Below, in pieces: positions 26,501 through 51,665 of a stretch of DNA of 64,000 nucleotides. Under the pieces are notes generated by a model, which was not told the DNA's origin, did no database searches, and saw only the letters and a program-made list of their open reading frames with translations. Within the stretch, counting starts at the first letter, position 1; every line of letters starts with the position of its first letter. The stretch comes from Hyaloperonospora brassicae (Eukaryota > Oomycota > Peronosporomycetes > Peronosporales > Peronosporaceae), in assembly GCA_947650285.1 (NCBI GenBank), contig CANTFL010001207.1:248001-312000 (forward strand), given 5' to 3'. The position numbers and the translations under genes were made by a program.

Positions 26501-29500
26501 CACATCACGTAGCTCCGGTTTTCACGACTCCGCACTTCGGTCGCGAAAGAGAGATGTCGCATTGAGCTTTCTGGACGCTTTGAGTGGCAAACGAGTGCCG
26601 TCTTTCGATGGGCACAAACCTGTAAAGGAGAAGCATAGCGCCGTGTCGCGCTCTGCTCCTATTCTGGACAATTTTCGTCTCCTTTTCCACATGATGAGCC
26701 TCAATCACGAGACCGTTGATATGATCTGGAATCAGAAAACTCGAGAAGAGCTTCGGGGAGCTCTTTACACTGCAATCCAAAGCTTTTCTAAATTCCGGCG
26801 CACTGACGAGGGCGTAACGGCTCGATGGAATTACGAAGATTTCAGCGTGTCGTACCCAAGCTTAGCTCGTGAAGTTGAGGTTGCTGGATGCTACGTCAGA
26901 ATCTTGGCGCACCTGAATAAAAACATGTCGCTTCATGAGGCAGCCACGGAGGAAGACAAGTTTATCGCGTTGACTCCAGAACAGGTCTCTGTAAAGGAAC
27001 CGCCGGTAGTCTTGGTTGCGCTTTATGTGCGTATGCTACGAGAAAGAATTCTTGCTGAGTACCGGGGCGATTTGGATACGTCAATACTTTGCATTAAGAG
27101 TATGGGAGTCGTGGCTGCTGCTTATGCTGAGGATGCGAATGCCATGGACTTTGAGGAAGTTGAGCATTTGTGGACGTTGATGAGTGAGACTGTACATGCT
27201 TCGGTGCTGGAGAACACCCTCCACACGATGCGAGCATTGTGCCAGCATCCTGGCAACGCGCGACGGGTGTTACGAAACGATCGCAACTTAGAGATGACGT
27301 TTCAGCTTCTCCACTTAGTACACGCAACCGGTCGTGGTATCGGCGACATCACCGAGCCCAGGAGACTTTGGACACTCGAAACGGATGAAGGTGAAGTGCT
27401 CGGACCTTATAGTGTGAACGAGCTCAAGCAGAAACTAGACGGAGGTCACGATCTGAATTCATTTTGGGTGAAACGTCGAGACGAACCGTCTTGCGAATCA
27501 ATGACCACCAGGGCAAGAGTTATGGATATTGCTCAGTTGCGCTGGGAGGTGGGGATCTCCGGGGAACTACATCCGTTGCAGATGGCACACGATGCGATCA
27601 GCATCTTACTTTCCGTAGCGCGCTGTAACTCATTGCTTGGCGACGACAGTCCTCACTGCAGTGACTCAACGTCGCCTCTTTTTCCTCGGCCTCTGGGGCA
27701 GACGATGCTGTGGAAGTTCATCAGGAAACTCGTCCCTGTTTTTATTCGCAGCAATCACCCAAAACTTTGGGAGAAAGCGGCTACACTTCTCGAGTTGTTA
27801 TATTCGAATCGCCGATTGATTGTTGAGGCCGAAGAAGGCGCTACAAATCAAGGATCGTTATTTTCATGGGGTTTGTTCTATTTGGCATTCACGGTGGAGG
27901 CGTCTGATTTTGGCGCAATGGCTGGCCTGTTGAAAGCTTCTCATCGCCGTCAGAGTGGGTTTGATGGAACCAGTGCATTGAACGGCATCTTACCTCAGGG
28001 CATGATCAGTTTGCTAGAAAATTCTACCTCGTCTGAGTTTACGAAAGTGTTTTATGCGGGAGAACAATCTCCTCACGTCATTTGGACTGTTGCTATGCGA
28101 AAGCACTTGCGAACAGTTTGTCGAACTCACTTGCAAGACTATGCCGATATTTTGGAAGAAGACGCGTCCCGAGAGTGGCGCTTTTGCGCCATGGCACCGG
28201 TTGTGTATCAGGAGCTCTCCAACGAATTGCTGTGCGGTGGGCTGTACTTGGGTCAATTTTGTGAGATGGAGACGTATGCTGTGTCAGACCCTATGGATTT
28301 TACTGAAAAGCTGATGACGGAGTGGAGAGCCGAAGCAAGTAGAAGAGAAGTTTCCGTTGCTTGTGCTCACGCAAAGCAAACTCTGGGTATTGCAGACGTC
28401 AAATATTGTGACGCCACTCTTCGTGCCGGCTATAAAAAGAAGGCTAGAGCCTTGAAAGAGTCGGATGGTGATTATGCCGAGAGGTACATACGAGAAGTGC
28501 TTAAGCTGTTGTATTGAGTCACGGGCTAACAGTTGTGTTCATGATAGGCTTGATCAGCTCCGGATTGCGTACCGAGTGCTTACATGTCCACGGCCGACGT
28601 TACTGTCTGCTGGACACGATCCTGAAAATCTACAGCTGCTGCTGCATTCGTTAGTCATTATGTGCAAGCGCTATCCAGAGTGTCTTGTCGACTACGAGTT
28701 CGACGCGTACGACCTCTTGCTTCCTCTCCTGGCTTCTCATTGTTCTGCAGATGAAGTCCCCCTAGTCGGCACAACTGAGAGTCAGAGGCTGAAGATCTCA
28801 GTATGTGCAGCGGAGCTTGTCTACAGCACATGCGCAATATCAGCTACGAACTGGGAGTTGCTCTTAGAGCACCCAGAATTGAGCACTCTAGAGAGAGTGG
28901 TGAATTTCTGCGTTGATTCAATTGTTGATTGCGAAACTGCGATGAACCCTGAGTTGTTGATGGTATGTCTGCTTGTACACCAAACTATAACTGGTCTATT
29001 GGCCTTTCCTCGGGGTCGAGGCTGGATCGCGGAGTCGTCAACATTGCTGGTGGATATGGTCCGCGTGCTTTGGCTATGGAATCATACCGGGCAGACATCA
29101 TTTTTGCTAGCGAAGCTCACACAGCAGATCCTCGAAGGTATGAGATGGTTACACGTTACGATTGTGCTGCATGCCATTTGTAGTCAGGGGCAATAACGTT
29201 ATATAATGTTTTGATATGTAGGCGTTTCAAGAATGACGGAATTGGCGAAAAATCAGACACGTCTGGTTCAATATGGGATACTGTGGCAACTCTTCAAGCT
29301 TTTTTCGACGTATGATGGGGAGCTCGGTGATGCAAGTGTCCATGCTCGACCGCAGACAAGCTTTGATTGCGAGGAAGAAGGGATTGCGACCGAGGCGTCA
29401 CAAAATCAGAATGTGCTAGCCGTCATGTCAGTTCGCGCTCTGTGCAGACTTGGGGGTCTGTTTGCCGAGGACAAGGGGCTTCAAACGCCGTTCAACCCTC

Positions 29501-31973
29501 TTGTCAAGCACACTGCAGACGCGCTACTGACTCCAAATTTGTCGCAGCTATTGCTACTTAGCAGCCACCACGAGTTCTTGAAGATCTACCACGGAGAATG
29601 TGAGTCTTACACGCTGTTTTGGAATCGTGACATGCGTCAAGAACAAATGAACTTCATATCGCCAAGGGCCAGTCTCGAGCCGCATGTTCGTACAAACGAA
29701 AGTTGCATCGAGGCCATTCGTTTCCGATTTATGTATTTGGCGGACTTACTGTATGTCGGTGGCCTGTACGTGAAAATTCTCATTGGAAGTTTGCAAGTCA
29801 TTGAGAAAAGTTCGGTGCCAGTGCTGCTAGATGATTTGGGACTTACGGCGACATTTTTCGAAGAATTGTTTGCTTTTATTGGTACTGGAGAGCTCACCTA
29901 CCCGCAACTTGTAAATGAGGAAGGGATCGTACAAAACCTTGCGCCGTATGCTGGTTGGAGTATCGATAAAGAGCAGCGAAGGACAGCGGATCGTGTCACC
30001 GCTCTGAACTGTTTGTCAGTCACAGCTTCCGTGGCCCCGAGGCTAGTGGAGAAAAGTTTGATGGCGAACAACACTGCAATGAAGATGATGATGCGCCTAC
30101 TATTTCCACCAGACAGTGAAGTCCACCGAAGCGAAGACGCTTCGAGAGGTCTCGTACCGACCCCGCTGCTGTATGTCCCATGTCGGCTGCACTGTATTGC
30201 GACATTACAGATGTTATCGATCCTGCCAGATTTTGGAACGGTCTCTGTAGAATCTGGCATATGTCACATTCTCATCGAATTGGTGCATACTTGTCACGAC
30301 GTCGGGCCAGAGGCACTCACGATCATCCGCAATCTCTGCGCCAATGGGGCAGGAGCGAAGTGTGCGAGAGACATCCTGCAATCGGGCATTTATTTGGAGT
30401 TCATTGGCTGGCTGTTGGCCGTGAGGGAAACCATCATCGATGAAGACTTTGATGCTGCGGAGCGATTGCGCATCCCGTCAGCATTGATTTTGTCAGAAAT
30501 GGTCAAGGATGGAGCGCCACTGAACATTGAATCGAGACGCACACTCTGCCGCTTCTTTCCTCCTGCACTCGTTCGAGTGATAGCTTCAAACCCGGAGATG
30601 ATCGTAGAATATATTCTGGTACGTGGTCTCAAGCTGACGCGGTTGTGTGCTTCGTGTGCTCAACTCCGTTTGTGCTTTTGTCATGGTGCAGGCTGACCAT
30701 AGGACACCAGAGCTTGTTTGGAACGTTGATTTCCGCAACCACCAAAGGAACAGTGTGGCTGGGTTCCTTGATATCTACTTCTCATCAATTTCTACCACCC
30801 AAACGAGGGACGATCAGTTCGTGTCAGTGGTCGACTCGTTTGAGATCGATTATAGCTCTGTTTACCCGGCTCTTATTGCTGGCAACGTGTATCTCAAGTT
30901 GTTCATGGAAGACCCAACATTCAGCTTGCACGATCCTCTGTACGTGCTCAACGCTTACTGTAATCGCGATGTGAGGTTGTTGAGATGACGCTGACACTGT
31001 TCTACGATACCTAGGTACTTCATGACGTGCTTGTGGTCCGAATTTGAGGCTCTGTTTCGACAACTTGCCCATGTGACACCCGCCCTACGCGCGACGATGA
31101 CGCGCGCGGATGACGGGATGGTACAGCGCGATATAGACGCAATCGATCTAGTCGGGTCGTCTCTAGTTTGTCTACTCCAGGTAGTGTATAGTCGCAGCGT
31201 TGACGATTGTGTACAGAAGTCGAGGTACTCACCCTACTGTGTGCTACATAGGCTGACACGTCGATGCTGGAAAATGTGGTGGAGCTACAAGTTTTTGCGA
31301 AGTGCTGCAACTATCTGAACGACGCAGTCCGTTCTCAAGCTTGTGAGCCATGCGTTGTGAACGTTGTGCGTATCATACGAGTTTGTAGTATGTCTCGCGC
31401 TTGCGTTGCGTCGGCACAACCAACGTGCTCCACAGCGTTGTCGTGTCTGATGGCCATCGCTAATCCCGCTCGAGGAGGTCCACTGCACTATGAGAGTGCT
31501 TTCGTCCTCGAGATTATGCGACAGATAATTATGAATTACCCGGAGCACGGTAACCGAGATGCGGATACAAGTATCGTGCATCTCGCGAGTCGGCTGGACT
31601 TGTTTGAGTTTCTGTGCAATATTCTGGACAGCCCTGGTGGAATTGGCAAAGTTAAGGAGCCGCGCATCGTGCGCGCTGAAGCAATTGAGATACTGAATAT
31701 GCTAGAAAAGGTGTGGGCTAGCGTAGCAGGCCACGACTGAAACGACATGTGGCTAAATCTCTACTGTGCTTGCTTTTTTGTCAGGACCGTGTCCAAGGGA
31801 GCACCGCTCACCAAATACTGAAAAAGCACAAGAAGTGGCAGAAAAGTTACCGACACGAAGCTACCGACGTGGTAATGTCCATGTCCACCGAAGACCCGTT
31901 CCTGAAATCCTTGTACCCCGAGGCAGACCGCATGATGCGCGAGTTTGCGCGCATGCACCCACGGCAAAGGTAA
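23581..31973 (+). CDS. DNAJC13: RME-8/DNAJC13 endosomal DnaJ co-chaperone
   Basis: Nine exons restore about 2605 aa (animals about 2240, plant GRV2 about 2550): 23581..24893, 24958..25295, 25366..28483, 28548..29137, 29222..30618, 30692..30939, 31015..31180, 31252..31710, 31785..31973. All phases agree. The N-terminal PH-like region shows VSWRGKYERILAIAPTCLFT and EVTNTWPLTAL. Four IWN-type repeats lie near 26716 (MIWNQKTREEL), 28078 (VIWTVAMRKHL), 29613 (LFWNRDMRQEQ) and 30707 (LVWNVDFRNHQ). A GYF_2-like segment (LWTLETDEGEVLGPYS) is near 27367. The J-like segment spans intron 4 (about 28360-28590) and lacks HPD. RME-8 acts with Hsc70 and retromer on endosomes. The start could also be 23494. 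A 57-bp in-frame stretch at 25746-25802 could be an optional intron. Confidence 0.9.
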
Positions 31974-33738
31974 TGTGCATCGAAGGATTGCAATTGACTC
32001 GGGACGTGAAGCCTTACATTTTGCCATGATGTGCTTGTATCATCGTTCGTGTCCTTGGGCAGTCCGAATGTGGAAGATTCTTGATCAAGACGGACATACA
32101 AAGTCGCGGCGTCTACACGCTTCGCTGACCACTTCTAGGTTTATCGCGTTCGTGCGATTGAGGCGGCGGCAATGAGCAGATATCAGCAGTGACCATGTAG
32201 CGCAAGCGTCGCTAGTCGGTTCATGTGCTGCAAAGGAAAGGGTGGTTGTGTATGCATCGATCCTAGCGACGGGGCGGCTACTGGTTGTCATTGCGGGTCT
32301 TGCAACTGGACCAACCGAGCCGTCGGTTGTTGCCTGGTTGGCGACAATATGCGGTGTGCATATCCATCCGTTCGAAGCAATCGGTCAGTGCGTGTACACG
32401 GGTTGCACAATGTCTGCTGTCATTGTGTCTTATAGGACCATGTCCGTAGCATAAAGTTGCAAGCCTAGTTGCTAGCCTTGCAACTTCCGTGCATATGTCG
32501 ACGACCGTAAGCTGGTTGTCAATACGGTTCATGTTTTACCGAGACCGTCATGGACTACATACAATATAGCCACGCCACGCACGCGGACGGCAAGGAACTT
32601 TGCTTCGGCGGATTGTGCTTGCTTATGGATCCGAGTCATTGTTGCTATCCTAGACAAATCGTCTCTGATGTTCCAGATACTCTTGTGAGCTGAGTATGAT
32701 CGCAAGCAATTGGTGCACAGATTGAGTAGTAAACTAGGAAGATAGTTGCTAGGTGCCGTGCGATTACGTACTTGTCGAATCGCGAAACTTGTTGCCGCGA
32801 CTACTTCGTCGTCTTTCCTGATGGAAAACAAACGTCGTAATCATCTCTGAGACTGCACTCCAGAAGGGCACATTCTCTGTATTTCCAGCGGCAAACCCAA
32901 ACGACTCTGACGTCATCCCGGACACCCTGTGCTCCAGAATCAGATCATCATCATTTTCGCTCGTAGGGGTATCCAAGAAAGTCTGGATCGGCGTCGTCAA
33001 GCTTGTCGTCGCATTTAGCAAACGATACGAAAGCGAAGTGCGATCTCAATCAGGTTGCGCGTGCCCATATTCCCGTAGGGAGCGAGGTAAAAAAGTAAAG
33101 AGAAAAAGTACCGGGTGCATACGAAGAGAATTTGGCGTAACGCAACGTCGCTTTGTCAGACAAGTGCACAGACTGAGCATCTCATGTGCGGATATCGTCG
33201 CAATGGCTATAACAAGGGATCTAAGGCACCCTAAAGTAGTCGAAGGCCGGGAGCAACCTCTGTTTCGATGTAAAGTAGACGTTGGCAGTTGAACATTGTC
33301 GATACGTACTGACCTTTTTGCGTCACAAAGGGCACGGGAAGCTGTAAGTATGGCCGGCCTTATTTATAAACAGCCGCCGCCTGATTACTACTCGAAGAGT
33401 CACTACTTGACGAGCCAATACTTCCGTGTCAATAATTGAAGAGTGTAAACTCCCGAGTTTAAGCTCAAAAAGTCAAGACTCGACTAGTATTGAAAATGCG
33501 CTGTCCATTTTTATTAACATATGCATATGAAAAGTGGGAAGAGGACGGAGAGCCGAACAATGGCCTCCAGAACAAGAATGAGATACCAATCGTCTACTTG
33601 AGTGCAAAAAGTGCATACAGGTACACTGTACGGTTTTTAGAGCTTTCAACTAACGCACAACGGTCCAGTCAACGCGTCTGATATCGATTTGCATTACTTC
33701 TAGCCCTCAAGACATCTGAACACTAAATAAAGATCCAT
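31974..33738. other. Gene-poor spacer before the gypsy element
   Basis: 1765 bp between the RME-8 stop and the left LTR. Composition drifts toward AT to the right. One possible exon on the minus strand is listed separately; the other short frames (for example a hydrophobic 70-residue one at 32242-32454) match nothing I recognise. Confidence 0.5.
32772..33021 (-). pseudogene. Possible exon or gene remnant, unassigned
   Basis: A frame of about 83 codons (contains EHRVSGMTSESFGF and PFWSAVSEMITTFVF, ends NKFRDST) has host-like composition and stops exactly at a GTACGT donor (32771). No ATG-led upstream exon or matching downstream exon was found. It may be the remains of a gene displaced by the nearby transposon block. 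Function unknown. Confidence 0.25.
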
Positions 33739-34129
33739 TGTAACGGGGCACACCCTTGCGTAACTTAACGCAAGGGTTTTGAGTGCCCCGACAGACGTAC
33801 ACGTGGCAAGCGAGGAAGCGTAGGTAGGGTAAAAGTAGAACTGTTACATTAATAAATTAAGTCTTTAAACTACTGTCTCTTCGTTTGACTTAATTCAATT
33901 ATACTAATATAACTGCATGTATGGTGACGTCTCGTCACCACTCATTGCGCGCGTCTTGCGGCGATTGGTGGGTTGATATCATCACGATATCAACCAATGA
34001 ACAGACCCTTTGGTCGACCCTTCAATATCACCACTTTGGTGATATTGTTTTAAAGAATATCCATCTTTATATTCTTTATTGTCACTTTCCTTAAAGTGAC
34101 AATTTCATGTAACGGGCTGCCCCGTTACA
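33739..34129 (-). repeat. 3' LTR of the gypsy element (left copy)
   Basis: 391 bp, TG...CA, preceded by TCCAT. It differs from the right copy only at 33847 (C; T at 41439). It holds nested hairpins, including arms 33752-33761/33768-33777, 34023-34032/34038-34047, 34081-34088/34093-34100 and 34109-34116/34121-34128. Being next to the antisense ORF, it is positioned to promote that ORF. Confidence 0.97.
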
Positions 34130-34140
34130 TCACCCCCCTT
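34130..34140 (-). other. Polypurine tract of the gypsy element
   Basis: On the minus strand AAGGGGGGTGA directly abuts the 3' LTR, as expected for the plus-strand DNA primer. Confidence 0.8.
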
Positions 34141-34259
34141 AACTGATAGTCACCGTGTGACTATCGAAAACATGGAGGCCACCCGTTGGCCACCATTGGG
34201 ACTGGGAGCACTTGTTGGGTCCGTTCCATTCACTTTCCGCTTGACCTCGCATAGTTAAC

Positions 34260-35867
34260 ATGTCTGTGCGAGGTGACTCAAGACCCACACAGCCTGGTGC
34301 TGTGCAAGCCTCTGCGGCAGACGCTTCGTCGTCTGCCGCCCCTTCTTCGCCTGCAGCAACAGGTGCTGCAGGTGCACGCGGTATCACACCGCGTGCGCAC
34401 GATGACCCTGATGTAGAGGTCATCTACTCTGGCGAGTCAGACGTGTCTGACTCGGGCAATGCTCCAGAGGCGTCTCGCTCACCGGCGACGCCTCAGTATT
34501 CGCCAAGACCACTGCCGAACGAACGGACTCGTGATTTGCATCACAGTCTGTTTGGCAGTGATGATGATGATGATCAGGGTGGTGAGTTTTATTCTTCACC
34601 ACCGCCGGCTCGTGCGTCTTCGCACGAGCGTGATGACGATGGCGCGAGCCGTCGTAAATTTGGGAGCCGTGGTACCGACAAGGGTACCACTGTGAAGCGT
34701 GATGAGTTGAAGCCGTGGCGTTTGCCCGAACGACTCATCAATAGCCTGTCTCACGAGACAAGCCAACACCATCGAATACCCTTATTCGATGCAACTGAGC
34801 TTCACGGCTTGAGTTCCAGCGCGAAGGACTTTCGCGCTGAGGAAGACTTTTATCTCAATGTTTTTCTTAGACATCGATGGTCGAACAGCAACCAAAAGCG
34901 TGACAAAACATCGCTTTTGGCTGCGTGGAACGCGTTCGTCCAAAACGTAAAGAATTTTGGACGAGAAGGGTGGCTCAAGAAACTTGAGGCAACACGCCTC
35001 AGGTTCGAACGGCGAACGCCAACCGGTGCTAGGTACCGGTTGCATTGTTTATCGAGTGAGGCAGGCATTCCTTGCCTCACATGGGGAGACCCTTGTGCGA
35101 GTTGTGTTGACAACTCGCAGCGTGCACATAGGGATGTGTACTCCCTAAATTCGCCCTGGGGAAGGGCACATCTCTCGGAGGAGATGCGTGACGCGATTGC
35201 AAACTTGCAATCCGTCTACAAGCGCCTAGGGCGCGTGTTTACCGATGGGCCACAGGACTCATCGGATGGGTCTCGTCATACTGGCGGACGAGACCTTCAA
35301 CATCCATCAACAGCTGAGAGCGGGGCTCCCAGCTGTTCCAAGAGGGTGGATACCCCCGCCACTGGACGAGGTAGCTCGTCCTTGATCCTGAATCGTCACG
35401 GTGATTCAAGATACGCTCCACTAGAAAGCGTTGTTCACCGTGAGCATCCACCAAAGGATGTGGTGGAGGAGGAAAGACCTCCTCCAGATGATTCGGCTCA
35501 CCATCTCGACCCTTACGAAATGGATCGCGCAATCGATGAATTGCGCGATGACTTGAAGCACGAGCGCGATCGGCGCTACGCTTTGACCAATACCGTGCGG
35601 AAGAACCGCAAGGGTCACGAGGCTGATCGGGCGAGGGATCGCGCCGATTATGCCACGGCGCAGCTTCAGGTCGAGCGGGATGTCCGCTCCCTATTCGGCG
35701 AGCTGGCGACAGCTCGCGGGGAGATATCTCGGTTGAATACCGAGGTATCATATCTGCGCGACCAGACGGATCGTCTGGAGCGCGAACGCAAGAACTTGAT
35801 GGATGTTCTTGAACGTGGGGGCTATCTTTATCGGAAGAAGAAGGCTCGTACTGACAGTACGACCTGA
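34260..35867 (+). CDS. Antisense accessory ORF of the gypsy element, unknown function
   Basis: 535 aa from an ATG 131 bp past the left LTR, on the strand opposite gag-pol. About 150 N-terminal residues are disordered: Ala/Ser/Pro-rich, then acidic ([24 protein letters not shown]). A folded-looking middle follows ([30 protein letters not shown]), with Cys residues in [11 protein letters not shown]. The last 110 residues form a charged heptad-rich coiled coil ([40 protein letters not shown]) and end in a basic patch (YRKKKAR). I recognise no family. It overlaps the chromodomain end of pol antisense over 35239-35867. Its length, regular domain pattern and intact frame favour a real protein, possibly Gag-like or regulatory. 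Confidence 0.65.
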
Positions 35868-38800
35868 GCCTCCCCACGTAAAACGTAGGATGCGTGCGCA
35901 TCCTACGTGGCAATTCGAGTGTGTATGCATTGCCCTTGCGATGCAACACTCGAAATGGCCCAATGTATTTCGGCAGTAGTTTGCTACTGCCGACACTAGT
36001 GACTGCATGTCCAGGTAGGTTTACCGTTGACAGTAGTACTAGGTCGTTAACCTTAAATGAAAGAACATTTGCTCTTCCATTCTTGTCTGCGTTCCGTTTC
36101 TGACGGTCCACCGCATTTGCGATGGAGTCCTGAACGAAACGGACTACCGCTTCTCGAGTCAGCAGGAAGTTCTCTGCTGACTCTTTGTTTTGTCTGGCAG
36201 TGTGTTTCGTGCGCACTGCTAAGAGATTGCTCTCTTCTTCAGCGAGGTTGTCTTCTTCCTCGCTGACATAATCGTTGGCGATGCTGAATATACCAGCATC
36301 GTCATCATCATCCGAATCAATAATAGCGTCTTCGCTATTATTGAGATGATCTTCTTCATCGATGTCGGCTTGATCGACATCGGCATCATACGTGACGACG
36401 TTTGCGTCGACACGTGATGAGCAAGAGCCAAAACGGTTTTTGCTCGAGCGAGTCCCTCCCCCTTATCCAAGAGTTACACTCTATAAGGGTGGGCACTCGT
36501 GGATGGCGTAGGCCATTCACGTAAAACGGTGTGTGCTGTGTTGAAGCATGCACCGAATTATTGATGGCGAATTCCACCATGGGTAGGAATTCGCTCCAAC
36601 TCGGAAACGAGTGGACATATCCTCGAAGTATCTCTTCGAGGACACGGTTCGCACGTTCCGTCTGACCATCTGTTTCTGGATGGTTAGAAGTGGACATCTT
36701 CAATCGTGTTCCGAGAGTATGGAACACGGTTTGCCAAAATTCCGCCGTGAACCGAGGGTCACGGTCGGATACGAGTTCACGGGGTAACCCGTGGAGTCTA
36801 AAGACCGTGTCTAGAAAGACACGAGCACAACCTTGAGCCTTGATTGACTCAGGGACAGCAGCAAGATGGACCATCTTGCTGAATCGGTCTACAAACACAA
36901 GAATACCATTATTCTTGTGAGCGTCTTCGGGAAACCCGAAGACGAAGTCCATTGAAACGGACTGCCAGCACTCTGTCGGAACAGGCAGAGGCTGCAATGG
37001 CGCACGGGATGAAGGACTAGGCTTCACCCGTTAACAAACTTCGCAAGCACGTATATACTTGCGAACAAACTGATACTGGTGGGGCCAGTAAAAGTCACGA
37101 CTTACCGTGAGGTAAGTCTTTTCCCTTCCACGATGGCCGCTTGTTGGGGCATCGTGACACTCGTACATGATGCGCAACCGCAAATCATGATGAGCGGGTA
37201 CGACGACACGAGGCGTGTCGTCGGCAACAGCTGTATAGTACAGCAATCCGTTGCGTGTACTATACCGATCCGATGAGGATCGGTACAAAGCCGGTAAATC
37301 CCTCATGGATTTACTGGATGGATTCACCAGATGATCCATCAATCGCAGAAGATCCTCATCTTCCGCGTATGCCTTTCGTACGTCGTCAAGTAAACTTGAC
37401 GACGGGACACTGACTGACAGTGTCGCAACAGTGGGCTTATCCTCAATGTTGGATTGTGCGTCCGGCTCGAAATTGGGCCGGCGCGAAAGAGCATCCGCGA
37501 CGACATTGAGTCGTCCCGGTTTATACTCCACGGAGAAGTTATACTCCGCGAAGAAAGACAGCCACCTCGCCATTCTTTGCGAGAGGTGTGGGCTGTTTAC
37601 GGCCGTGCGTAATGACGCATGGTCCGTGTAGACAACAAACGGTCTATCTCCCAAGAGATAGACGCGAAACTTAGCCAGTGCATATTTCATGGCAAGGAGT
37701 TCCTTGTCATGCACTGGGTAATTACGCTCAGCTGCTTGCAGCTGACGCGACTGATAACAGATGACGCGCTCCGCGCCATCTGCATCGAACTGCATTAACG
37801 CACAGCCGATTGCGAAATCGCTGGCGTCACAGACCACATGAAATGGTCTGTCCTGATCTGCAATCGCCAAGATCGGCGATTGCATCAAGCTCCGCTTGAT
37901 ACCTTCAAAGGAACGCTGGCACTCAGCGTTCCATGACCACTTGACATTTTTCTTGAGCAAGCAAGAAAGATGAACAGTCATCTCGGCGTAGTTGCGCGAG
38001 TACTTGTGCAAGTACGCCGCAAGACCAAGGAACTTCCTTAGTCCCTTGACATCGACTGGCACTGGCCAGTCGGTGATCGCCTTGATCTTTTCGGGATCAG
38101 GGCGTACGCCGTGTTTACCCACGATGCACCCAAGAAGTGGTATTTCGCTAGCCGCGAATATACACTTCTTGAGGTTGGCGTACAACTTATGCTTGCGCAT
38201 AAGTTGAAGAACCTGACGAACGTGAGTTCTGTGAACTTCAACGTCCGTCTCTCCGTCCATAGCCCGGCTATGGACGAACACATCGTCGAAGTAACTCGGT
38301 GCGAAGTCTCGCACCGGTCTCAACAGATTTGTTACACATCTGTTGAATGTTGCAGGGGCATTACTCAGCCCCTGTGGCATCACTAGCCACTCCCACAGCA
38401 TCCCGCTGGGGGTACTCACTGCCGTGAACGGGACGTCCCGTTCACGCATCAGGATCTGATAGAATCCATCCATCAGATCCATGGACGAAAAGATGGTACT
38501 CTTGACATACCATCTATGATTACGTCCTTCCTCGGTATCGGCGTCTGAGCCGGTACCGTTGCAGCATTCAACTTGTTGAATGCGTGCACTATCCGCCACC
38601 CTCCTGTGGCCTTTCGCACACAGAAGGTCGGAGAGCTGTGAGGGGATGTTGATTCCCTCACATGGCCCGCTGCTAAGCGATCGGCAAAGAACTTGTCGAT
38701 CGCTAGTCACTTGTTCACGAGGCAGTGGCCACTGCTTCATGACACAGTATTTCGAGCCCGGTTTGAGCTCGATCTCGTGTCGAGTGCCTTTGTCCTTAGG

Positions 38801-40153
38801 CAACTCGCAAGGTACGGATTCAGGGAACACATCCCTGAATTCGATCAAATCCTTATACAAAGGATTTGCCTGAAGTGACTCCCAGGATTGGGACGCGTAT
38901 CGCTCAATCCGAGTCTTCTCATCGAGGACACTTTCGTTCATCGATGAGCTGCTGAGAACCCGTTCGTTCTCAGCAAATACTGTTGCCGACCGAATGTCGG
39001 TCACATACTCGTCCTCTGTGACGAGTATGCAGATCTGCTTGACTTTGCCACTACGCAGATCACGCAAGAACCGTTTCGGTTCTAGCGTTGGCAACTGAGT
39101 TATCTCCGAAGTCAACTTCGGAGGCACAATCAGATCAAGCGTATAAGCGCCTACGCTTGATCCATCATTAACCAAGACGTTCAACGTCTCGGTTACTTCC
39201 TGGGAACTTGCTTCCACAGGTTGCTGAGGGCCTAATCCCTCAGCAAGCGACTCTTGAGGAATTCCTTCCTCAAGTACGTGGGGGCTTATTCCCTCGACGT
39301 CTTCCGACTGAGGCTGTGCAACCACAGTCAGGAACCGATTCTCTACGGTCGACTCTCCAGTCGACCTAGGATTTTCATGTTGCCCCTTGGGGGCAACAGA
39401 CTTCTTTCTTCTATCATGCTGCCCGCTAGGCATGCATCCATGTCCCGGTCCACTCGACTTATTCGAGTGGTGGACCTTCGGCGCAGCCTGTACTTCTGTA
39501 CAGCCGCCGGGAGCTTGCTCCACAGTGTAGTGATCAACTACACTGTGATCTTGTGCAGTCGTGCTAACGACCGTACCGCAAGTGAGGCCATCGCACTCAC
39601 TCGCAGAACATCCACACGCTTGTGGACGCTCCAAGATGTTCATCAGATGGCCATCTGATGAACAAGCAGCAGGCATCTTCACGGATCGATGCTGCCAGCT
39701 CACTCTTGGCTCGTACTTTCTGAGCCAAGGTAATCCCAGGATGACATCAAATTTGTCATCCAGATCTAGTACGATGAAGTCATCATCGTACTGTTCGCCC
39801 TCTAACGTGTAGTGGATTCCTACTACACGTTTCTTAGCGGTAATCGATGCGCCTGTTGCAAGGCGCACCGTCATCCTCGTGAGGGGAATGTCGCGCTCAG
39901 CGAACTTGAGCCTACGACCCTCTAGTAACTGGCGACGAACAAAGTTGTTCGACGCCCCACAGTCTACTAGGGCACGAAGTGACGAATCATTTGTCGCTTC
40001 AAACTTCAAGGTGATGAGCGAAACGCCATCACCAGGTGCAGAGACACACAATGATTGTGTATCTGGAGCAACTTTCGTCAAGAGATTTGCAAATTCTCTT
40101 GAGGTTGCTGGATCAGTAGGGCGCTCCGCCCCTACTGACCCCGACCATTTTTT
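35239..40153 (-). pseudogene. pol: gypsy pol (protease, RT, RNase H, integrase, chromodomain), broken in four places
   Basis: Reading on the minus strand, pol is entered by a -1 shift at about 40147. Protease: LRALVDCGASNNFV and VILGLPWLRKY. RT: SSMDLMDGFYQILM and YFDDVFVHS (YFDD codons at 38282-38293). RNase H: VVCDASDFAIGCAL and TDHASL. Integrase: the HHCC finger ends near 37034; the core has MDFVFGFP, SDRDPRF and TERANRVLEE. Chromodomain at the end: [17 protein letters not shown]. Lesions: a frame change near 38705 and its reversal near 38503 (about 66 codons out of frame inside RT), a TAA at 37033-37031 in the integrase finger, and another frame change near 36455-36463. An acidic spacer precedes the final part (36216-35239). 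Catalytic residues are otherwise intact, so decay is recent. Confidence 0.9.
40110..40153 (-). promoter_or_regulatory. Predicted -1 ribosomal frameshift signal at the gag-pol junction
   Basis: On the minus strand the heptamer A AAA AAT (40153-40147) lies in the gag frame, followed by a 6-nt spacer and an 11-bp stem (40140-40130 with 40121-40111, one G.U pair) with an 8-nt loop. The gag stop TAG (40134-40132) is inside the stem. Pol is open in exactly the -1 frame from this point. Confidence 0.75.
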
Positions 40154-41286
40154 GATGGTCCGTCTCGCTGTTGCGGCTTCGCAACAGCGCTGGACCCACG
40201 CCCATTGCCCTTTCTGGCAAAAGGTCGTCCATTTCGCTCAATACTGTTTGGTACTGGGCGTGGAGCACTACACTCGTATGCGTAGTGCCCTAACTTCTGA
40301 CAGCGATTGCACCTCTGCAATCGCTTGTTGTTTGTAGAGCGAGGTCTCTCGCTCTCAACATAGCAGAGGTCCATTGGTTCTGGACCTCCGATCTCTTGTC
40401 GTCTCGGTGGACGGTAAGAGTTTGAGCTAGCATGAGCCTGTCTCATGCTTAAGTCTTCCTGTTTCGCGGCTGATATCGCATCTTCCAGAGTATTCAGCTC
40501 AAGGCGGAACAGGTGGCTCCTGACGGGCCCTTCTGCGAGCCCTTGCATGAACACCGTAATCAACGTGTGTTCATGTACTGGGTGGGAAGTTATACTACTC
40601 GCAAGGAGTCGTATATGTTGAGCGTAAGCGTGCACATCACGCTTACCCTGCTTGAGTTTCAGGAGCTCTGAGCGAGCCCTGAACTCAGCACGTGGCGGCT
40701 CAAACGTTTGTCTGAGCCGGGACTTGAAGTCATCTAGCGACCTAAACACATTTGGGTCGCTACTCTCGAGTCCCAGGGACCAAGTTTTGGCACGCCCTGC
40801 CAAGTGGGTCTGAGCAAATGTGAGTTTCATTTGCTCATCTTCGACGCGACGAGCCCTTAGGGCTCTGTCGAGTTCGACAAACCATAGTAACAGGGAGTCC
40901 TCCGGGACTCCACTGTACTTGGAGATGTCGACTTTCATGACTTCGGGACGACGCACATGCGCCGTCCCGCCCACAGCAGCATGGAATTGCTGCTGTCTCA
41001 ACAGCTCCGTCTGTTGAGCACCGAGTTCTCTCAACTGCTCGGCCTGTTGAGAGCCTTGCTGGTGAAGCAAGGCTACTTTCTCCCTCTCGATAGCAAGTTC
41101 ATTCTGAATGAACTTGGCGATAGCGGCATGTTGTTGGTCTCTGTCTAGAGACTCCAACATGGTGCTGACGACGAGTTCGCCTACGGTAAAACTCATTCGT
41201 TCTACCGCACCCCATTCGATGTCACTCAAATGGGTAAACCCTTCACGCGTGGCGTGAAAGGTGTCTTCTTCATCCAACATGTTCAT
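40132..41286 (-). CDS. gag: gypsy Gag polyprotein
   Basis: 384 aa, intact from ATG (41286) to TAG. The middle matches the retrotransposon gag capsid domain (LLWFVELDRALRARRV, FKSRLRQTFEPP, VHAYAQHIRLLASSI, VFMQGLAEGPVRSHLF). A CCHC zinc knuckle follows (CNRCQKLGHYAYEC), then a basic tail. Gag assembles the virus-like particle and packages element RNA. It ends inside the frameshift stem described above and lies 45 bp after the 5' LTR. Unlike pol it carries no lesion. Confidence 0.92.
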   Translation of the reverse strand: MNMLDEEDTFHATREGFTHLSDIEWGAVERMSFTVGELVVSTMLESLDRDQQHAAIAKFIQNELAIEREKVALLHQQGSQQAEQLRELGAQQTELLRQQQFHAAVGGTAHVRRPEVMKVDISKYSGVPEDSLLLWFVELDRALRARRVEDEQMKLTFAQTHLAGRAKTWSLGLESSDPNVFRSLDDFKSRLRQTFEPPRAEFRARSELLKLKQGKRDVHAYAQHIRLLASSITSHPVHEHTLITVFMQGLAEGPVRSHLFRLELNTLEDAISAAKQEDLSMRQAHASSNSYRPPRRQEIGGPEPMDLCYVESERPRSTNNKRLQRCNRCQKLGHYAYECSAPRPVPNSIERNGRPFARKGNGRGSSAVAKPQQRDGPSKNGRGQ

Positions 41287-41310
41287 GTTGGATGATGTGG
41301 TCCTTGGAAG

Positions 41311-41328
41311 GACTACAAAGTGCTACCA
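41311..41328 (-). other. Primer-binding site of the gypsy element
   Basis: Two bases after the 5' LTR the minus strand reads TGGTAGCACTTTG. The first eight bases would pair with a tRNA ending UGCUACCA, as eukaryotic initiator tRNA-Met does; pairing beyond that is weaker. Confidence 0.6.
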
Positions 41329-41330
41329 GG

Positions 41331-41721
41331 TGTAACGGGGCACACCCTTGCGTAACTTAACGCAAGGGTTTTGAGTGCCCCGACAGACGTACACGTGGCA
41401 AGCGAGGAAGCGTAGGTAGGGTAAAAGTAGAACTGTTATATTAATAAATTAAGTCTTTAAACTACTGTCTCTTCGTTTGACTTAATTCAATTATACTAAT
41501 ATAACTGCATGTATGGTGACGTCTCGTCACCACTCATTGCGCGCGTCTTGCGGCGATTGGTGGGTTGATATCATCACGATATCAACCAATGAACAGACCC
41601 TTTGGTCGACCCTTCAATATCACCACTTTGGTGATATTGTTTTAAAGAATATCCATCTTTATATTCTTTATTGTCACTTTCCTTAAAGTGACAATTTCAT
41701 GTAACGGGCTGCCCCGTTACA
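41331..41721 (-). repeat. 5' LTR of the gypsy element (right copy)
   Basis: 391 bp, followed by the second TCCAT. Identical to the left copy except T at 41439. Confidence 0.97.
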
Positions 41722-44700
41722 TCCATGATCTCAGTTGGCGCTGTAAGTAAAAAATTCTTTGCTCTGCTGGCGTAGCAACCTTCCAAATTATAAATTACAT
41801 CACTTTTTTGTGGTCCATTATTTATAGTTTCGAGGTACATACTGTAGGTGCATTACTTATTGTTAGAAAGTATTTGCTACAGTTTGTAACATCTCCTGCA
41901 TGGACCATGTTCATAAAATGCAATAGGATCAGCTTTAAGAGGCATGGAAGTCGTCGCCTTTCGTGCAAAACGCTAGGACAAACAGCGACCACATCTAGGT
42001 ACACGTACAACCACTTTTATGACCTGGGGGATAGAGATGGTGAGAGGAAGCCATTTACAAAGGAGGATATGGCGAAGCCACATGTAGTAGAGAAGCGGCG
42101 TATGGTATATCTGAGCCATATTTTACATCATAATCGGGAGCGCTTCCTCAGCAGTCCTAAATACTAGTGTGACATCAGTCTCGTCCCATTTTGTAGAAAG
42201 TAGCCTGGCTATTGAAGTTAATTATAAGAAAGTTTGATTCACTACCAGAACACCTCTACCCCTATTTCCTTCGCTGGGGCATTCTTGAATTAAACTATTC
42301 ATGACTGGACCAATTTATAGATCCAAAAGTCTCATTCATTTGAAAGTACATTGCAGAAAAGTCAAGACCCATGACCAACATGCTTTCGAAGCTACAAAAA
42401 TACTTTTCATAACAGAACACAACGGCTACTCGCCCATATTTTACGAATAGTCAAGAGCAGATGAATATTTAGCCTTTATGATTTGATCTGATTACGCCTT
42501 ACTAGATGCCGGACGAACTACTCAGGAAGGAATGGGATGAGTCTAGGTAGAAACACCTACACAGTTCATTTCGGCACTGCTACGATAACACGACAGGATC
42601 TAGCCATGCCTCTGCGTATCTTATGGCATATGTGACAATAGAAAGCATAGGCAATATCCGATTTTGCGATCAAGATGAGACGCAAGACATGCGGAACCAT
42701 TCTCGTATTGCTAAGTTACGAGAGACAATGAATCCGTTTCAAAAAAGTGAATGGAAATCAAGGTGACACAAGTAGTCTAAAAGACGTATTAATGAGATTA
42801 GGTAACGCGTTGGGTTAACTATCGGTAGCAACAAAAGTGGAGTATTGGTGAGCTTAGGTAACGCGTTGGGCTAACTACCGGTAACAACAAAAGTGGCATT
42901 TTCACGCCGGCACAATAAGCAAAAAATATAACGTTGTGCACTCTCTATGGCTTAAATCAAATTGATAAATTTCGTCGGGATTCCAACGACTCACGGTTAT
43001 GTATATCGGGAGGGGGATTACTGAAGATGCTGACAAATTGTAAACAAGGCTTAATCGACGGTGGGTCCGAACATTTTGTAGAGATACCCATTATATGGCT
43101 GCTCTGTTGCGTAACGCAGCATTGACGTATTAAAGGTGTAAAATACGGATTCAGTGGACCAGATATGACTCAAATTTCGCCCATATATTTAAGAGAGACA
43201 CAAAACTTGTTTAGGTAGTTGTATGCTACAGAGCATCGATTTAGCATGCATGAGGGAAAAATTACAAACAACAAGGTCGATATAGGTTGTGCGATATGCA
43301 GTGATTTTTACGACCTTAAACTAAACTAAACTTAGTCATTCGTCATTTTTAAACAAAGAGCCGTCTTCATAGCCTTAGTCGACGCAAAAAACAATCGTAT
43401 CTCACCAGGCAGATCTACCGCAGATTACGGCGATCGCCGATATTGGTGCGAGACACCATTGCTGCATTGGTAAACAAAGTTATTTATTGATAGCTTTACT
43501 TTGAATACCTTATCTCGATAAGAAGTCATCGATCAAACAGCAGCAAGTTGTAGGCAGCTATAATGTATGTATATTCTACCCCATCCATATAATCACTGAT
43601 AAATGTAGAGGAGACAAATAATCGGGGCTGTATTCCGATAATATTGAAATGGAGGAAGCTGTGGTACAAATGATCCATGATACAGATACAACAAAGGAGG
43701 AATAAACAAATAATACACTGTCCACTAATACCTCAACGGTATAATGAGTCGCATTGATCATATCCATGTAGGTGTGTTTGACAAGAAATAAATCAAAACG
43801 GTCGGCGATGGCTGAAACGCTGTTCTTTCTGGATAAAATTTTGAGTAGCACGCTATCGTAACAGCAAAACTTGATTCTCCATTCATCCTTTATATCGATC
43901 ATATATTTGATTTTTCCAGATGTCTGCTTACATCCCTCGAGTGGTAAGTACTAGATCACTAGTCCAAACTCTGTCACATAGAGTATTCTATAATAAAGCT
44001 AGAACTATTTTTATATAAGGTGTAATTATAATGATATTAAAATGGATGGGCCAATAAAATTTCGATATAAGGCTAGGGGCCTCCTTGTATCGCTTACCTC
44101 CAATTGTTTACAGCGCAAAATATGGAGGAGATTCTCTAAGAGAAAAGTGCGGTAAACGGCTTTTTTAAACGCAACGATACAAAACAATCTTTAGCCACAT
44201 ATGTCTAATACGTTCCGTTTTTTGACCGTGCATTCGACCGCATATTGCTGCCATGTAGGATGGCCATTGTGAGCCTTTTAAGTTCCAAAACACCCGACTG
44301 ACCCTAGTAGCCATGAAACCATAATACGAAATTCTTTGATTTTTGGTAGACTTAAATATATTTATTTCATGTAAAATAGAAGCTCTTCCCTCGTTGAGTT
44401 TTTCAGTTGGACGGTATATGGCAAACCACTACAACGACCAGCTGACACGTTATTTCGGTACCGCGAGCTAGGCAAGATAACTACACAAAGGCTACGTTGT
44501 TCAGTACATGTACACTGCTATCAGACTGGGTGTGTAGCATGGCTAATAAATCATATCGTCTCCGTCAGTATACAATTATCACCTGTGCCACAAATCATAT
44601 GAATCGAGTAAAGGGCACAATCCACTTATACGTCGTGTTTCTGTCATTTCTGGAATGACATAGGCCATAAAGAAGCTAAATAGCAGATGTTATCGTCAAC

Positions 44701-46669
44701 GACTTTAATCATCTAGCGAAGCGATTAAGAGAAGGAAGCATATCGTCACATATGCGGGATATGATTGCGATACCTACCACAAATTAATTCATTTTGATAC
44801 GCGTTGAATCTCAGAGATATAAGGAGCATAAATTTAGCTGGTGTTAAAGTCAACTCTGCTAGCGACATGAAGTATAGACCAATAATACTACTTGTATCTT
44901 ATCAAGATAATTCGCGGAATGCGTGTGATCTCCAATGATGTATAAAGGAGAGCATTTAGGTCGTCGTATCACGCTATAAATGTCTAGTAACATCTTCGTA
45001 TTAGTTATACATCTACCCGCACGAAAATTCCAACATTATATCATACATGCTATAAGCGGTCGGGAAGTGATGATAGCCAATTCCTTCAAACGTTTATAAA
45101 CTGTTTTGACCGATAAATTGTTATAGCGTGCCTACACGAACAAAGTGAGCGTGAATGATAAATATACTATTTTACGAGCGAAAGAGGCAACAACTTAGCC
45201 GTATGACAAGATGTTGCTATCAGAAAATTGCGATTATAAGTTCTTTCGAATAATCACCGTACTACTCATGTAATGTATATTTATAAGTGAAGTAACTTCT
45301 CATACGAGCACGACGATGACCACGGGAATTGTCGTACAAAACGAAGAATTCGAACCATTTTTAGATGCATGCTGACATTCTGATTTACTAACGAACGTAT
45401 GTTCCTATATGTATAGACTATCACTCAATCAAACTGATTTGTTGCATGTATTATCGTGGAGGCAACAGCGTCCTAATGACGCGCCACCGAAATTCATCGA
45501 AGCAGCTGTAGCGAATATCCAAACGGTGACCATAAATTTTCATGTAACCATATCATCACCAATGATCTGATTGAGACAAGTTGACATAGTGGAGCGTAGA
45601 TCGGAGAACCTGACTCGTCTCATGTATCACTACAAGCGACTAGCGCATGTTTAAATAAATGTTATGTGAATGTAAAATCGAAACTGAAAAATCAAGCAAA
45701 AAGTACAACGTTCGGATAGTACGACACATCCAGTCCAAGAGATATAAATACCGATACATGCGGAGCAGGAAGGTCAAAATTATCATCTCAGCGCATGTTG
45801 TTGAGATTTGAAGACATAACCGACCAACCGTTATGCGACTGCTTTATTATGATCGAGGCAAGCGGTCGCTATCAATATTTGACATCCGTTGCGTCTTTTG
45901 GCATACATAATTTCGACATGGGTCTATGGCGAAATCATTTCTACAGGCTCAATCGCTTATACTGAACTTGAAGGGTACAAAACATGGGTACAGATGTGAT
46001 CTAGACAATATTCGAAATTGTATTAAATGCATAATGATAATAAACGTGACAGTTTTGTTGGTACATGACATATTTGAAATTACTCTGTTCTGCATACATG
46101 CGTGACCACCTCAGTCGGTCCAGATACATCTAACCTTCTGATGTCGTAAGGGTCACCAAGGAGAATAATGCCAAGAAGACATCGAAACTTACTATGTTTT
46201 ACCAGATGAGCACAAAATCATAGGGAGATACTCGCATTGATGTGTACGCTACAAATAACGAAAACCTTAACAAAGCACAATTGTGGGACGCTTCTATTGA
46301 TCAGAATACTGTTCAGATTGTTTGTATAATAGACTAAACGGTATCAAACATCTACGAGATAGATTAAGTGATTATTGGGCAGACCGATGTCACCAATTTA
46401 TCCCCCAGTAATAGGATATATGTGTATCAAGCAGTAAGCAGACGGTCGTGCAAAGAAGATTCTGCGCCGGCCCGATCATGATTTCAAGCACAATCGAGAT
46501 AAGTTTCTCTCAAGTCTATCGCGAATATATGAAATCAGTCCGGTCCGATGATATACAAGGTGCGCACAAAATATATGCTGACAGCACAGACTGGAGTGTT
46601 CTCTACAAAGGTGTCAAGTGAGGTCAATACAAAGTTCGTATATCGCATCATAATTCTTGCAACAGCTGC
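41722..46669. other. AT-rich, gene-free DNA
   Basis: About 5 kb with markedly lower GC than the host genes and dense stop codons in all frames. Frames up to about 120 codons (for example 41808-42167) resemble nothing I know. The sharp change of composition at the right LTR shows the gypsy element was inserted at or near the edge of this block. Confidence 0.6.
42787..42898. repeat. Two-copy tandem duplication, 56-bp unit
   Basis: 42787-42842 and 42843-42898 are about 89% identical; both contain GGTAACGCGTTGGG and end in ACAAAAGTGG plus two bases. Confidence 0.85.
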
Positions 46670-46705
46670 TAAACAGATAAGCTTGACGTATAGACGGTCT
46701 TATGC

Positions 46706-46905
46706 CCGCCGGAAGTTTCTAAAGGTAAAAGAGGAAGTTTAATAGAGAAAGGTTTAATGAGACCACCAATATTTCTCACCTAATTACTGGCATGATCATG
46801 CTCCTCAATAGGTAGAAAATACTACTTGCGTCACTCTGACGATAAAAATCTCCGCTAGACTCCACATACGAAACTCCAACGGCAGCCAATTTTCAACAAC
46901 CCTCC
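46706..46905 (-). repeat. Left degenerate direct repeat, probable copia 3' LTR remnant
   Basis: Similar over about 195 bp to 51469-51665, starting at CCGCC and including AATAGGTAGAAAATAC. It may extend some 30 bp further left. Substitutions and small indels throughout show great age. Confidence 0.7.
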
Positions 46906-47723: not shown

Positions 47724-47782
47724 CATGAGCATTTTCCAGGTTCGGGTGCATGAGCATTTTCCAGGTTCGGGTGCATGAGCAT
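47724..47782. repeat. Perfect 25-bp tandem repeat, 2.3 copies
   Basis: 47724-47748 and 47749-47773 are identical (unit begins CATGAGCATTTTCCAGG); a third partial copy follows. Its perfection inside decayed copia DNA points to a recent slippage or duplication. Confidence 0.9.
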
Positions 47783-51468: not shown

Positions 51469-51665
51469 CCGCCGATAGTTTTTAAAAGTAAAAGAGGAAG
51501 TGTGATATAGAAAGGTATAATGAGTCCAACAATCGTTCTCATGTAAGTACTGGCATGATCATGCTCCTCAATAGGTAGAAAATACGATTTGCGTCACACT
51601 AACAATGAAAGTGTCCGCTAGACTCCAAATACACAAACTTCAACGTCAGTTAATCTTTGACAACA
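51469..51665 (-). repeat. Right degenerate direct repeat, probable copia 5' LTR remnant
   Basis: Partner of 46706-46905; see that entry. Confidence 0.7.

What the first reader, a model, noticed from the sequence alone, without database searches (positions are those of the whole stretch)
33739..41721. A whole retrotransposon saturated with perfect short inverted repeats
Almost every 45 bp holds a perfect hairpin: in LTRs, leader, gag, pol and the antisense ORF alike. Examples (arms): 33752-33761/33768-33777; 34145-34153/34157-34165; 34434-34442/34445-34453; 35524-35533/35540-35549; 35971-35979/35984-35992; 36859-36869/36871-36881; 36923-36932/36936-36945; 37642-37650/37655-37663; 38254-38262/38268-38276; 40302-40310/40317-40325; 40546-40554/40567-40575; 40812-40820/40828-40836; 41094-41104/41106-41116. 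In 34130-36000 I count at least 21 with arms of 8 nt or more and loops of 12 or less; chance (about 12 x 4^-8 per site) gives about 0.35. Proteins remain normal, so synonymous and non-coding positions carry the pattern. It stops at the LTR ends and is absent from neighbouring host genes. I know of no description of such an element. Possible causes: a reverse transcriptase that repeatedly corrects quasi-palindromes by template switching, or selection for RNA structure (packaging, small-RNA escape, translation control).
Basis: partly seen in the sequence, partly recalled or inferred. Interest (0 to 1): 0.93.

Follow-up and report, generated by a model that had tools for sequence, protein, structure and literature searches.

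The report
Retrotransposon written in conserved perfect hairpins
A common jumping gene in this genome carries over a hundred tiny perfect hairpins along its whole length, through its protein genes and its ends, and its lineages keep many of them by paired mutations, so an extra layer of information on both strands seems to be under selection.

Summary
It is no assembly artefact: all family copies fetched elsewhere have it; the fetched sister Gypsy and other integrase-bearing elements do not.

Two subfamilies (pol 84-88% alike, gag about 72%) share most hairpins. Of 39 stem pairs changed on both sides, 28 stay Watson-Crick. Stems change less than loops between subfamilies, while private mutations of single copies ignore stems. 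G-U is tolerated no better than A-C (61:60; private 135:132), so what is kept is strand-symmetric. Pairs that would leave a loop under 3 nt are kept far less, so folded single strands matter.

Template-switch copying is disfavoured, not excluded; selection for folding of both strands fits best. Folding excess (43-48% over codon shuffles) exceeds the highest whole-genome value (23.4%) given for vertebrate RNA viruses in one paper (passages read). The function, escape from silencing or sense-antisense pairing, is inference.

The parts
33739..34129 (-). 3' LTR in the element's sense (-) direction, 391 bp, itself full of hairpins
   Evidence: differs from the other LTR at 1 of 391 positions
41331..41721 (-). 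5' LTR in the sense direction, 391 bp
33734..33738 (.). target-site duplication TCCAT, left copy
41722..41726 (.). target-site duplication TCCAT, right copy
40132..41286 (-). gag ORF, 384 aa (Retrotrans_gag, Ty3_capsid, zinc knuckle below its cut-off); 14 hairpins arms>=8
37031..40081 (-). protease-RT-RNaseH-H2C2 part of pol (RVP_2, RVT_1, RT_RNaseH, Integrase_H2C2); 38 hairpins; frame interrupted in this copy, longer uninterrupted frames exist in other copies
36386..37027 (-). integrase core (rve) part of pol; 6 hairpins
35239..36216 (-). integrase C-terminal part with SH3_Tf2-1 and chromodomain; 8 hairpins
34260..35867 (+). antisense ORF, 535 aa, no Pfam match, overlapping the chromodomain ORF; 21 hairpins; 65 of 81 scored matches in the genome (the window's own included) have no internal stop
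41313..41328 (-). probable tRNA primer-binding site (TGGTAGCAC...), in a hairpin-free spot
   Evidence: sequence, hairpin list; the role is inference
34133..34140 (-). probable polypurine tract (AAGGGGGG) next to the 3' LTR, hairpin-free, close to the hairpin 34145-34165
   Evidence: the role is inference
33739..41721 (.). hairpin array: 118 non-overlapping perfect hairpins (arms 7-14, mostly 7-10; loops 0-12, mode 4-5), counted over one LTR plus the interior
40336..40355 (.). example of a covarying hairpin: AGAGCGAG/CTCGCTCT here, AGGGCGAG/CTCGCCCT in subfamily B
40811..40837 (.). example of a covarying hairpin: TGAGCAAATG/CATTTGCTCA here, TGAGCGAATG/CATTCGCTCA in subfamily B
36317..36344 (.). 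hairpin with four compensated base pairs between subfamilies (and two broken ones in B)
37228..37265 (.). hairpin turnover: in B the segment pairs leftwards (CTGCTGTA tag TACAGCAG, 5 B copies), in A rightwards (GTATAGTACA/TGTACTATAC)

Best explanation
The element is a young insertion of a multi-copy Ty3/Gypsy LTR retrotransposon with a chromodomain and a long antisense ORF. Its whole sequence is overlaid with about 118 local hairpins (stems mostly 7-10 bp, loops mostly 3-12 nt). SHOWN: the pattern is in every family copy fetched and predates the split of two subfamilies; between these subfamilies stems change less than loops and many changed pairs are compensated, while private mutations of single copies ignore stems. 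What is kept is Watson-Crick pairing in a strand that can fold with a loop of at least 3 nt, equally for both strands. INFERRED: selection acts, while the element multiplies, on folding of both polarities of its nucleic acid (sense genomic RNA together with antisense RNA, small RNAs or first-strand cDNA). The most likely benefit is shielding from complementary nucleic acids: with both strands folded on themselves, sense-antisense duplexes and guide-target pairing form poorly, so the element escapes RNA silencing although it may be expressed from both strands.
For: Density against controls. Fetched family copies have it; fetched sister Gypsy and other elements do not. Compensation between subfamilies: 21 of 30 double changes in 38634-41721 stay Watson-Crick, against 22 of 108 when partners are slid by 1-3 columns; 28 of 39 over the three regions compared. 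23 of 29 hairpin sites of B share their pairing with a hairpin of the window copy. Stems change less than loops: pol third codon positions 13/142 stem, 15/40 loop, 61/275 spacer; antisense-ORF region 8/220 stem, 8/62 loop, 32/218 adjacent bases; LTR 13/116 stem, 21/46 loop. Private mutations do not avoid stems. Pairs leaving a loop <3 nt are broken in 60/264 cells against 472/7542 mid-stem. GU:AC is 61:60 among persisting single changes and 135:132 among private ones. Folding excess over codon shuffles is 43-48% sense and 43-55% antisense. Codon-phase class 3-3 is depleted in gag and pol (14 of 74), as expected if stems were built through synonymous sites.
Against: The function is not tested; no expression or small-RNA data were available. 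Constraint is moderate: 97 fixed single changes break a pair between subfamilies, B's majority lacks many A hairpins, and one gap of 217 nt has no hairpin. In the LTR, stems and spacers diverge alike (13/116 and 15/135); only loops differ. The deficit of shared stem variants is clear only when pooled (p 0.002; A alone p 0.10). Strand symmetry could also mean a DNA-level cause. The sharp fall after 10 bp and the shorter arms with longer loops are not explained by a simple stability threshold. The antisense ORF shows no clear purifying selection between subfamilies (43 synonymous, 46 non-synonymous changed codons of 309). The state of a group at each site was the majority of a few, partly decayed copies, and hairpins were defined from the window copy.
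Confidence: 0.54

Rival explanations
1. Copying mechanism: the element's reverse transcriptase folds the nascent strand back at imperfect palindromes and copies one arm into the other, which creates and then maintains perfect stems without selection for structure.
For: Perfect Watson-Crick only, no wobble preference; stems need a physical loop; among the fetched elements only this family shows it; one site where four changes lie on one arm (37233-37265). Template switching is known to create and maintain hairpins in DNA replication (PMC8794818, abstract and part of the introduction read).
Against: Inverted-copy matches among 192 private pol clusters are fewer than at random places: 20, 1, 0 at padding 1, 2, 3 against about 33, 9, 3. 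Fixed single changes outnumber compensated ones 97:28, whereas fast homogenisation predicts the reverse. 24 of 28 compensated pairs are transitions; stem variants are 51% (private), 62% (fixed) and 69% (shared) transitions, giving two-sided p of 0.0002, 0.01 and 0.065, so this test is moderate. LTR stems slower than loops. No arm polarity (64 vs 58 changes against the sister family, whose third positions are near saturation). Stem counts drop beyond 10 bp.
Confidence: 0.17
2. Selection on the sense genomic RNA alone (packaging signals, compaction, translation control or genome-scale ordered RNA structure of the ordinary kind).
For: Extreme sense-strand folding (43-48% excess); a sister Gypsy family has a virus-like excess of 13-14% without perfect hairpins; probable primer site and polypurine tract lie in hairpin-free spots; outside the stems G-U exceeds A-C at one of eight flanking positions (15 vs 4).
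Against: G-U is not tolerated better than A-C inside stems (61:60; in interior mismatches of A copies A-C even exceeds G-U, 61 to 30, copies not independent); antisense folding is as strong; no loop motif was obvious in the loop list (by eye only).
Confidence: 0.12
3. DNA-level selection: hairpins of single-stranded cDNA or cruciforms in the integrated or extrachromosomal element protect or position the DNA, or are bound by a structure-specific protein.
For: Strand symmetry; DNA folding z of -17.9 on a 900-nt piece.
Against: I know of no reason for some 118 cruciforms; private mutations of resident copies ignore stems, so selection must act during the transposition cycle.
Confidence: 0.13
4. 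Assembly, sequencing or chance artefact.
For: None found.
Against: Present in copies on many contigs, absent from other fetched repeats of the same assembly, with subfamily-specific compensated pairs, and far above codon shuffles.
Confidence: 0.01

Closest known systems
Ty3/Gypsy LTR retrotransposons with chromodomain (chromovirus type, Metaviridae; labels recalled)
   Same: LTRs, 5-bp target duplication, gag, PR-RT-RH-IN order, chromodomain
   Different: whole-length perfect hairpins and a long antisense ORF; the sister Gypsy family in the same genome (55% aa identity over 1016 aligned residues of pol) has no perfect-hairpin excess
Genome-scale ordered RNA structure (GORS) of positive-strand RNA viruses
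   Same: many local stem-loops through coding regions, folding excess over shuffles, paired sites constrained (PMC7642675 and PMC3950689, passages read)
   Different: 43-48% excess here against 23.4%, the highest genome value given in PMC7642675 (single regions there reach over 50%); stems perfect and wobble-free; pairing conserved with compensation, whereas that paper reports positions and pairings poorly conserved among sarbecoviruses; strand-symmetric; a retrotransposon, not an RNA virus
Template-switch (quasi-palindrome) mutagenesis
   Same: would give perfect, wobble-free stems (PMC8794818, abstract and part of the introduction read)
   Different: its expected footprints (inverted-copy clusters, mostly double changes, copied transversions) were not seen beyond one candidate site

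Membership tests
Ty3/Gypsy LTR retrotransposon | two LTRs and a short target duplication | tested here: met
   391-bp LTRs differing at 1 position, TCCAT duplication
Ty3/Gypsy LTR retrotransposon | gag, then PR-RT-RNaseH-integrase in Gypsy order, chromodomain | tested here: met
   Pfam matches
Ty3/Gypsy LTR retrotransposon | tRNA primer-binding site | tested here: inconclusive
   TGGTAGCAC at the expected place; no tRNA was matched to it
Genome-scale ordered RNA structure | folding energy well below that of composition- or codon-matched shuffles across coding regions | tested here: met
   43-48% over codon or mononucleotide shuffles; z -16.2 over 20 dinucleotide shuffles of a 900-nt piece
Genome-scale ordered RNA structure | structure of the genomic (sense) RNA, wobble pairs allowed | tested here: not met
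   GU equals AC in stems; antisense strand as structured
Genome-scale ordered RNA structure | pairings poorly conserved between relatives (as reported for coronaviruses; not strictly defining) | tested here: not met
   23 of 29 B sites share their pairing with the window copy
Template-switch mutagenesis | mutation clusters that are inverted copies of nearby sequence | tested here: not met
   20, 1, 0 of 192 private pol clusters at padding 1, 2, 3; random places about 33, 9, 3
Template-switch mutagenesis | both arms changed with the spectrum of a single mutation | tested here: inconclusive
   24 of 28 transitions; p 0.0002 to 0.065 depending on which single-change spectrum is taken
RNA-silencing escape | antisense transcripts or small RNAs of both strands, and poorer silencing than of unstructured versions | not testable with these tools
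   no expression data

The most novel reading that the evidence does not exclude
A retrotransposon expressed from both strands has written its entire genome, LTRs and protein genes included, as a strand-symmetric code of perfect hairpins, so that sense RNA, antisense RNA and the small RNAs cut from either fold on themselves instead of pairing with each other: a structural counter-defence to RNA silencing carried by the sequence itself rather than by a suppressor protein.
Probability: 0.26. Interest if true: 0.93.

Novelty: new variant of a known kind. Interest (0 to 1): 0.82.

Why it matters
Pervasive RNA structure is known from some RNA viruses, where the pairings drift and the cause is argued over. 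Here the signal is far stronger, discrete, and present in a hundred or so copies of different ages in one genome, with a sister family lacking the hairpins as a control. Post-insertion (neutral) and between-transposition (selected) changes can be separated, so the question of what selects genome-wide structure becomes directly testable. If the silencing-escape reading holds, it is a protein-free way to evade RNA interference. If the copying reading holds after all, it is a reverse transcriptase that rewrites its own genome.

Tried and rejected
Assembly artefact: rejected. Chance or codon usage: rejected. Sense-only RNA structure: looked for wobble enrichment in interior mismatches, fixed differences and persisting versus private changes; none. 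Template switching: cluster scan, arm polarity against the sister family, one-arm multi-base differences, transition share; disfavoured, not excluded at a low rate. Loop motifs: by eye only, none obvious. Intermediate families between 65% and 84% identity: not seen among the loci fetched with RNaseH and integrase searches; the sister-RT search listed only matches at 86-100% to its query; all score only the best candidates. Relatives in public collections: none confirmed in viral contigs or genome contigs. Whether the sister family has the antisense ORF: undecided (one search scored 81 of 3725 candidates, all window-like). Host identity: probably an oomycete, recalled resemblance only; a text search for an assembly with 898 contigs gave nothing useful. 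Rows left out: L001 is the window itself; L039 holds the same copy as L034 and was not used in the group counts; L034 was in B but not in the fixed-difference counts; L013 was in neither group; L082 and L084, fetched at places whose pol is B-like, are A-like in gag and were counted with A and left out; gap cells were dropped (67).


Full report
OBSERVATION. Perfect inverted repeats with arms of 8 or more and loops of 12 or less number 103 inside 33739-41721 and 9 in the other 56 kb (12.9 against 0.16 per kb). Codon-preserving shuffles of each of five ORFs give means of 0.2-1.2 against 6-38 observed. Maximal stems of 8, 9 and 10 bp number 32, 28 and 24 where block shuffles give 0.95, 0.30 and 0.05; at 11, 12, 13 and 14 bp the counts are 8, 4, 0 and 1. 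Loops peak at 4-5 nt. 'Every 45 bp' is a little generous: median centre spacing is 52.

THE ELEMENT. It is a Ty3/Gypsy element on the minus strand: gag 41286-40132, PR-RT-RH-H2C2 40081-37031, integrase core 37027-36386 and SH3/chromodomain 36216-35239, with a 535-aa antisense ORF at 34260-35867 that has no Pfam match. LTRs of 391 bp differ at one position and lie between TCCAT duplications, so this insertion is young. Its pol frame is interrupted; longer uninterrupted frames exist elsewhere. The genome (100.6 Mb, 898 contigs, unnamed; I think an oomycete, from memory only) holds at least 107 gag matches at 96% identity or more (107 of 4864 candidates were scored). The antisense ORF has 81 scored matches at 94% or more (of 3725 candidates), 65 of them without internal stops; between subfamilies its codon changes in the part read are 43 synonymous and 46 non-synonymous of 309 codons, so its protein constraint is not shown.

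NOT AN ARTEFACT, AND SPECIFIC. In the seven other gag loci (L002-L008) hairpins are as dense. Of 30 loci fetched with the RNaseH family, 24 belong to this family (86-98% nt identity) with 6.4-13.9 hairpins/kb, and six are a sister Gypsy family (about 65% over the roughly 1.1 kb that aligns) with 0.3-0.6. The 30 loci fetched of 150 integrase-core matches, none with a blastn match to the element, have 0-0.6. The ten loci fetched with a pol piece of L034 (84-88%) have 4.8-7.9, and the seven gag/LTR stretches hold 15-34 each in 3.1 kb.

TWO SUBFAMILIES AND COVARIATION. Call A the window-like copies and B the L034/L040-L048 group. B is 84-88% identical to the window in pol, but five B copies are only 72-73% identical over most of gag and 78-81% in the LTR. 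Of 29 hairpin sites seen in at least two of five B copies (38634-41721), 23 share their pairing with a hairpin of the window copy, three overlap one in another register, and three have none there; one of these three is intact in the majority of A copies. In the same stretch 30 stem pairs differ on both sides; 21 are again Watson-Crick, against 22 of 108 when partners are slid by 1-3 columns. Adding pol and the antisense-ORF region it is 28 of 39; in the antisense-ORF region itself 129 of 138 pairs are unchanged and none is compensated. An independent count on one 782-column alignment gives 92.7% paired cells against 30-47% for slid partners, and five pairs with both-sided changes against 2.0 in shuffles (5 of 500 reach it); the number of further pair types there was not unusual (192 of 500).

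STEMS ARE CONSTRAINED, LOOPS ARE FREE. A-B divergence is 56/898 in stems, 179/1771 in spacers and 50/326 in loops of pol; 90/538, 288/1062 and 48/194 in 39511-41343, and with B-defined hairpins 48/374, 348/1318 and 30/102; 8/220 in stems, 32/218 in the ten bases on either side and 8/62 in loops of the antisense-ORF region. At pol third codon positions (37031-38400) it is 13/142, 61/275 and 15/40. In the LTR it is 13/116 stems, 15/135 spacers, 21/46 loops: loops are free, but spacers there are as conserved as stems. Private mutations, which should be mostly post-insertion and neutral, fall evenly (A: 0.67% stems, 0.64% loops, 0.76% spacers; B: 3.2, 3.5, 2.9%). Variants shared by several copies are relatively fewer in stems than in spacers (pooled odds ratio 0.69, p 0.002; A alone p 0.10, B alone p 0.02; copies are not independent). 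I infer that the filter acts while the element multiplies, not on resident DNA.

WHAT IS SEEN BY THE FILTER. First, a folded strand: stem pairs that would leave a loop shorter than 3 nt are broken in 60 of 264 cells, mid-stem pairs in 472 of 7542. Second, Watson-Crick pairing of both strands: stems of 4+4 pairs around one interior position hold a Watson-Crick pair there 109 times, G-U 4, A-C 5 and other mismatches 9 times; single changes that persisted (fixed or shared) are 61 G-U, 60 A-C and 77 other against 135, 132 and 253 private ones. A purely sense-strand RNA constraint should prefer G-U. Third, within coding limits: the pairing class that joins third positions to third positions holds 14 of 74 gag and pol hairpins (p 0.009), though not fewer than a third in the small chromodomain ORF (5 of 12).

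HOW STEMS ARE KEPT. Fast copying of one arm into the other predicts mostly double changes, the mutation spectrum of single events, non-coding stems evolving as fast as loops, and inverted-copy clusters. Seen instead: 97 fixed single against 28 compensated changes. Of the 28, 24 are transitions, where stem variants are 51% (private), 62% (fixed) and 69% (shared) transitions, p 0.0002, 0.01 and 0.065; two independent mutations would give 68-91%, so this test is moderate. LTR stems are slower than loops. Of 192 private pol clusters, 20, 1 and 0 match an inverted copy at padding 1, 2 and 3, where random places give about 33, 9 and 3. One site (37228-37265) does show four changes on one arm, together with loss of an alternative hairpin, and could be a template switch.

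FOLDING. Over codon shuffles the folding excess is 46.6% (gag), 47.7% (L012 pol) and 43.4% (L013 pol) in sense, and 43.4, 54.5 and 50.2% in antisense; two sister-family pol stretches have 13.8 and 12.6% sense and 14.9 and 12.8% antisense; two host genes have 0.7 and -1.7% and one other-element stretch, Copia-like by eye, 1.9%. A 900-nt piece has z = -16.2 against 20 dinucleotide shuffles; a sister piece -3.7. PMC7642675 (passages read) gives 7.5-10.7% for hepatitis C virus, about 15% for SARS-CoV-2 and 23.4% as the highest recorded vertebrate RNA virus genome, with single regions above 50%; its shuffling method and fragment size differ from mine, so the comparison is approximate.

INTERPRETATION. 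Selection for self-folding of both polarities is best supported. Which molecules are meant is inference. Sense RNA is needed by any such element; the antisense ORF suggests antisense RNA. For Phytophthora, small RNAs of 25/26 nt come mainly from transposable elements (PMC3804510, passages read), and the commonest hairpin sizes here are 23, 24 and 26 nt, but I could not test the host or any small RNA. Shielding from sense-antisense and guide-target pairing would explain strand symmetry, whole-length coverage and indifference to sequence. A DNA-level cause remains open.

NOVELTY. Nine literature searches (a tenth was for the host) listed no description of a hairpin-saturated retrotransposon; I saw listings only, apart from the four papers named (PMC8794818, PMC3804510, PMC7642675, PMC3950689). 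The library holds open-access papers only. I file it as a new variant of pervasive genome structure: it meets the folding-excess criterion but not sense-strand wobble tolerance.

Noticed in passing
L030, L017 (sister Gypsy family, pol): A sister Gypsy family without perfect hairpins still folds 13-14% better than codon shuffles, like structured RNA viruses; possibly an earlier stage of the same trait.
   Followed up: partly
window 34260-35867 (+): Long antisense ORF found in many copies (65 of 81 scored matches without internal stop), coiled-coil-like C-terminal end by eye, no Pfam match; A-B codon differences 43 synonymous and 46 non-synonymous of 309, so purifying selection is not clear.
   Followed up: partly
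L079-L081, L083, L085 against window 39221-39510: Five subfamily B copies join a gag/LTR module only 72-81% identical to A with a pol 84-88% identical, and lack about 290 bp there; two other places with B-like pol (L082, L084) have A-like gag: modular recombination between lineages.
   Followed up: partly
window 42000-56000: A block of about 40% GC between stretches of roughly 50-60% GC, without ORFs of 330 aa or more; nature not examined.
   Followed up: no
window 25278-31740: The ORF 25278-28517 matches RME-8_N; following ORFs up to 31740 may belong to the same host gene, ending about 2 kb left of the insertion; not tested.
   Followed up: no
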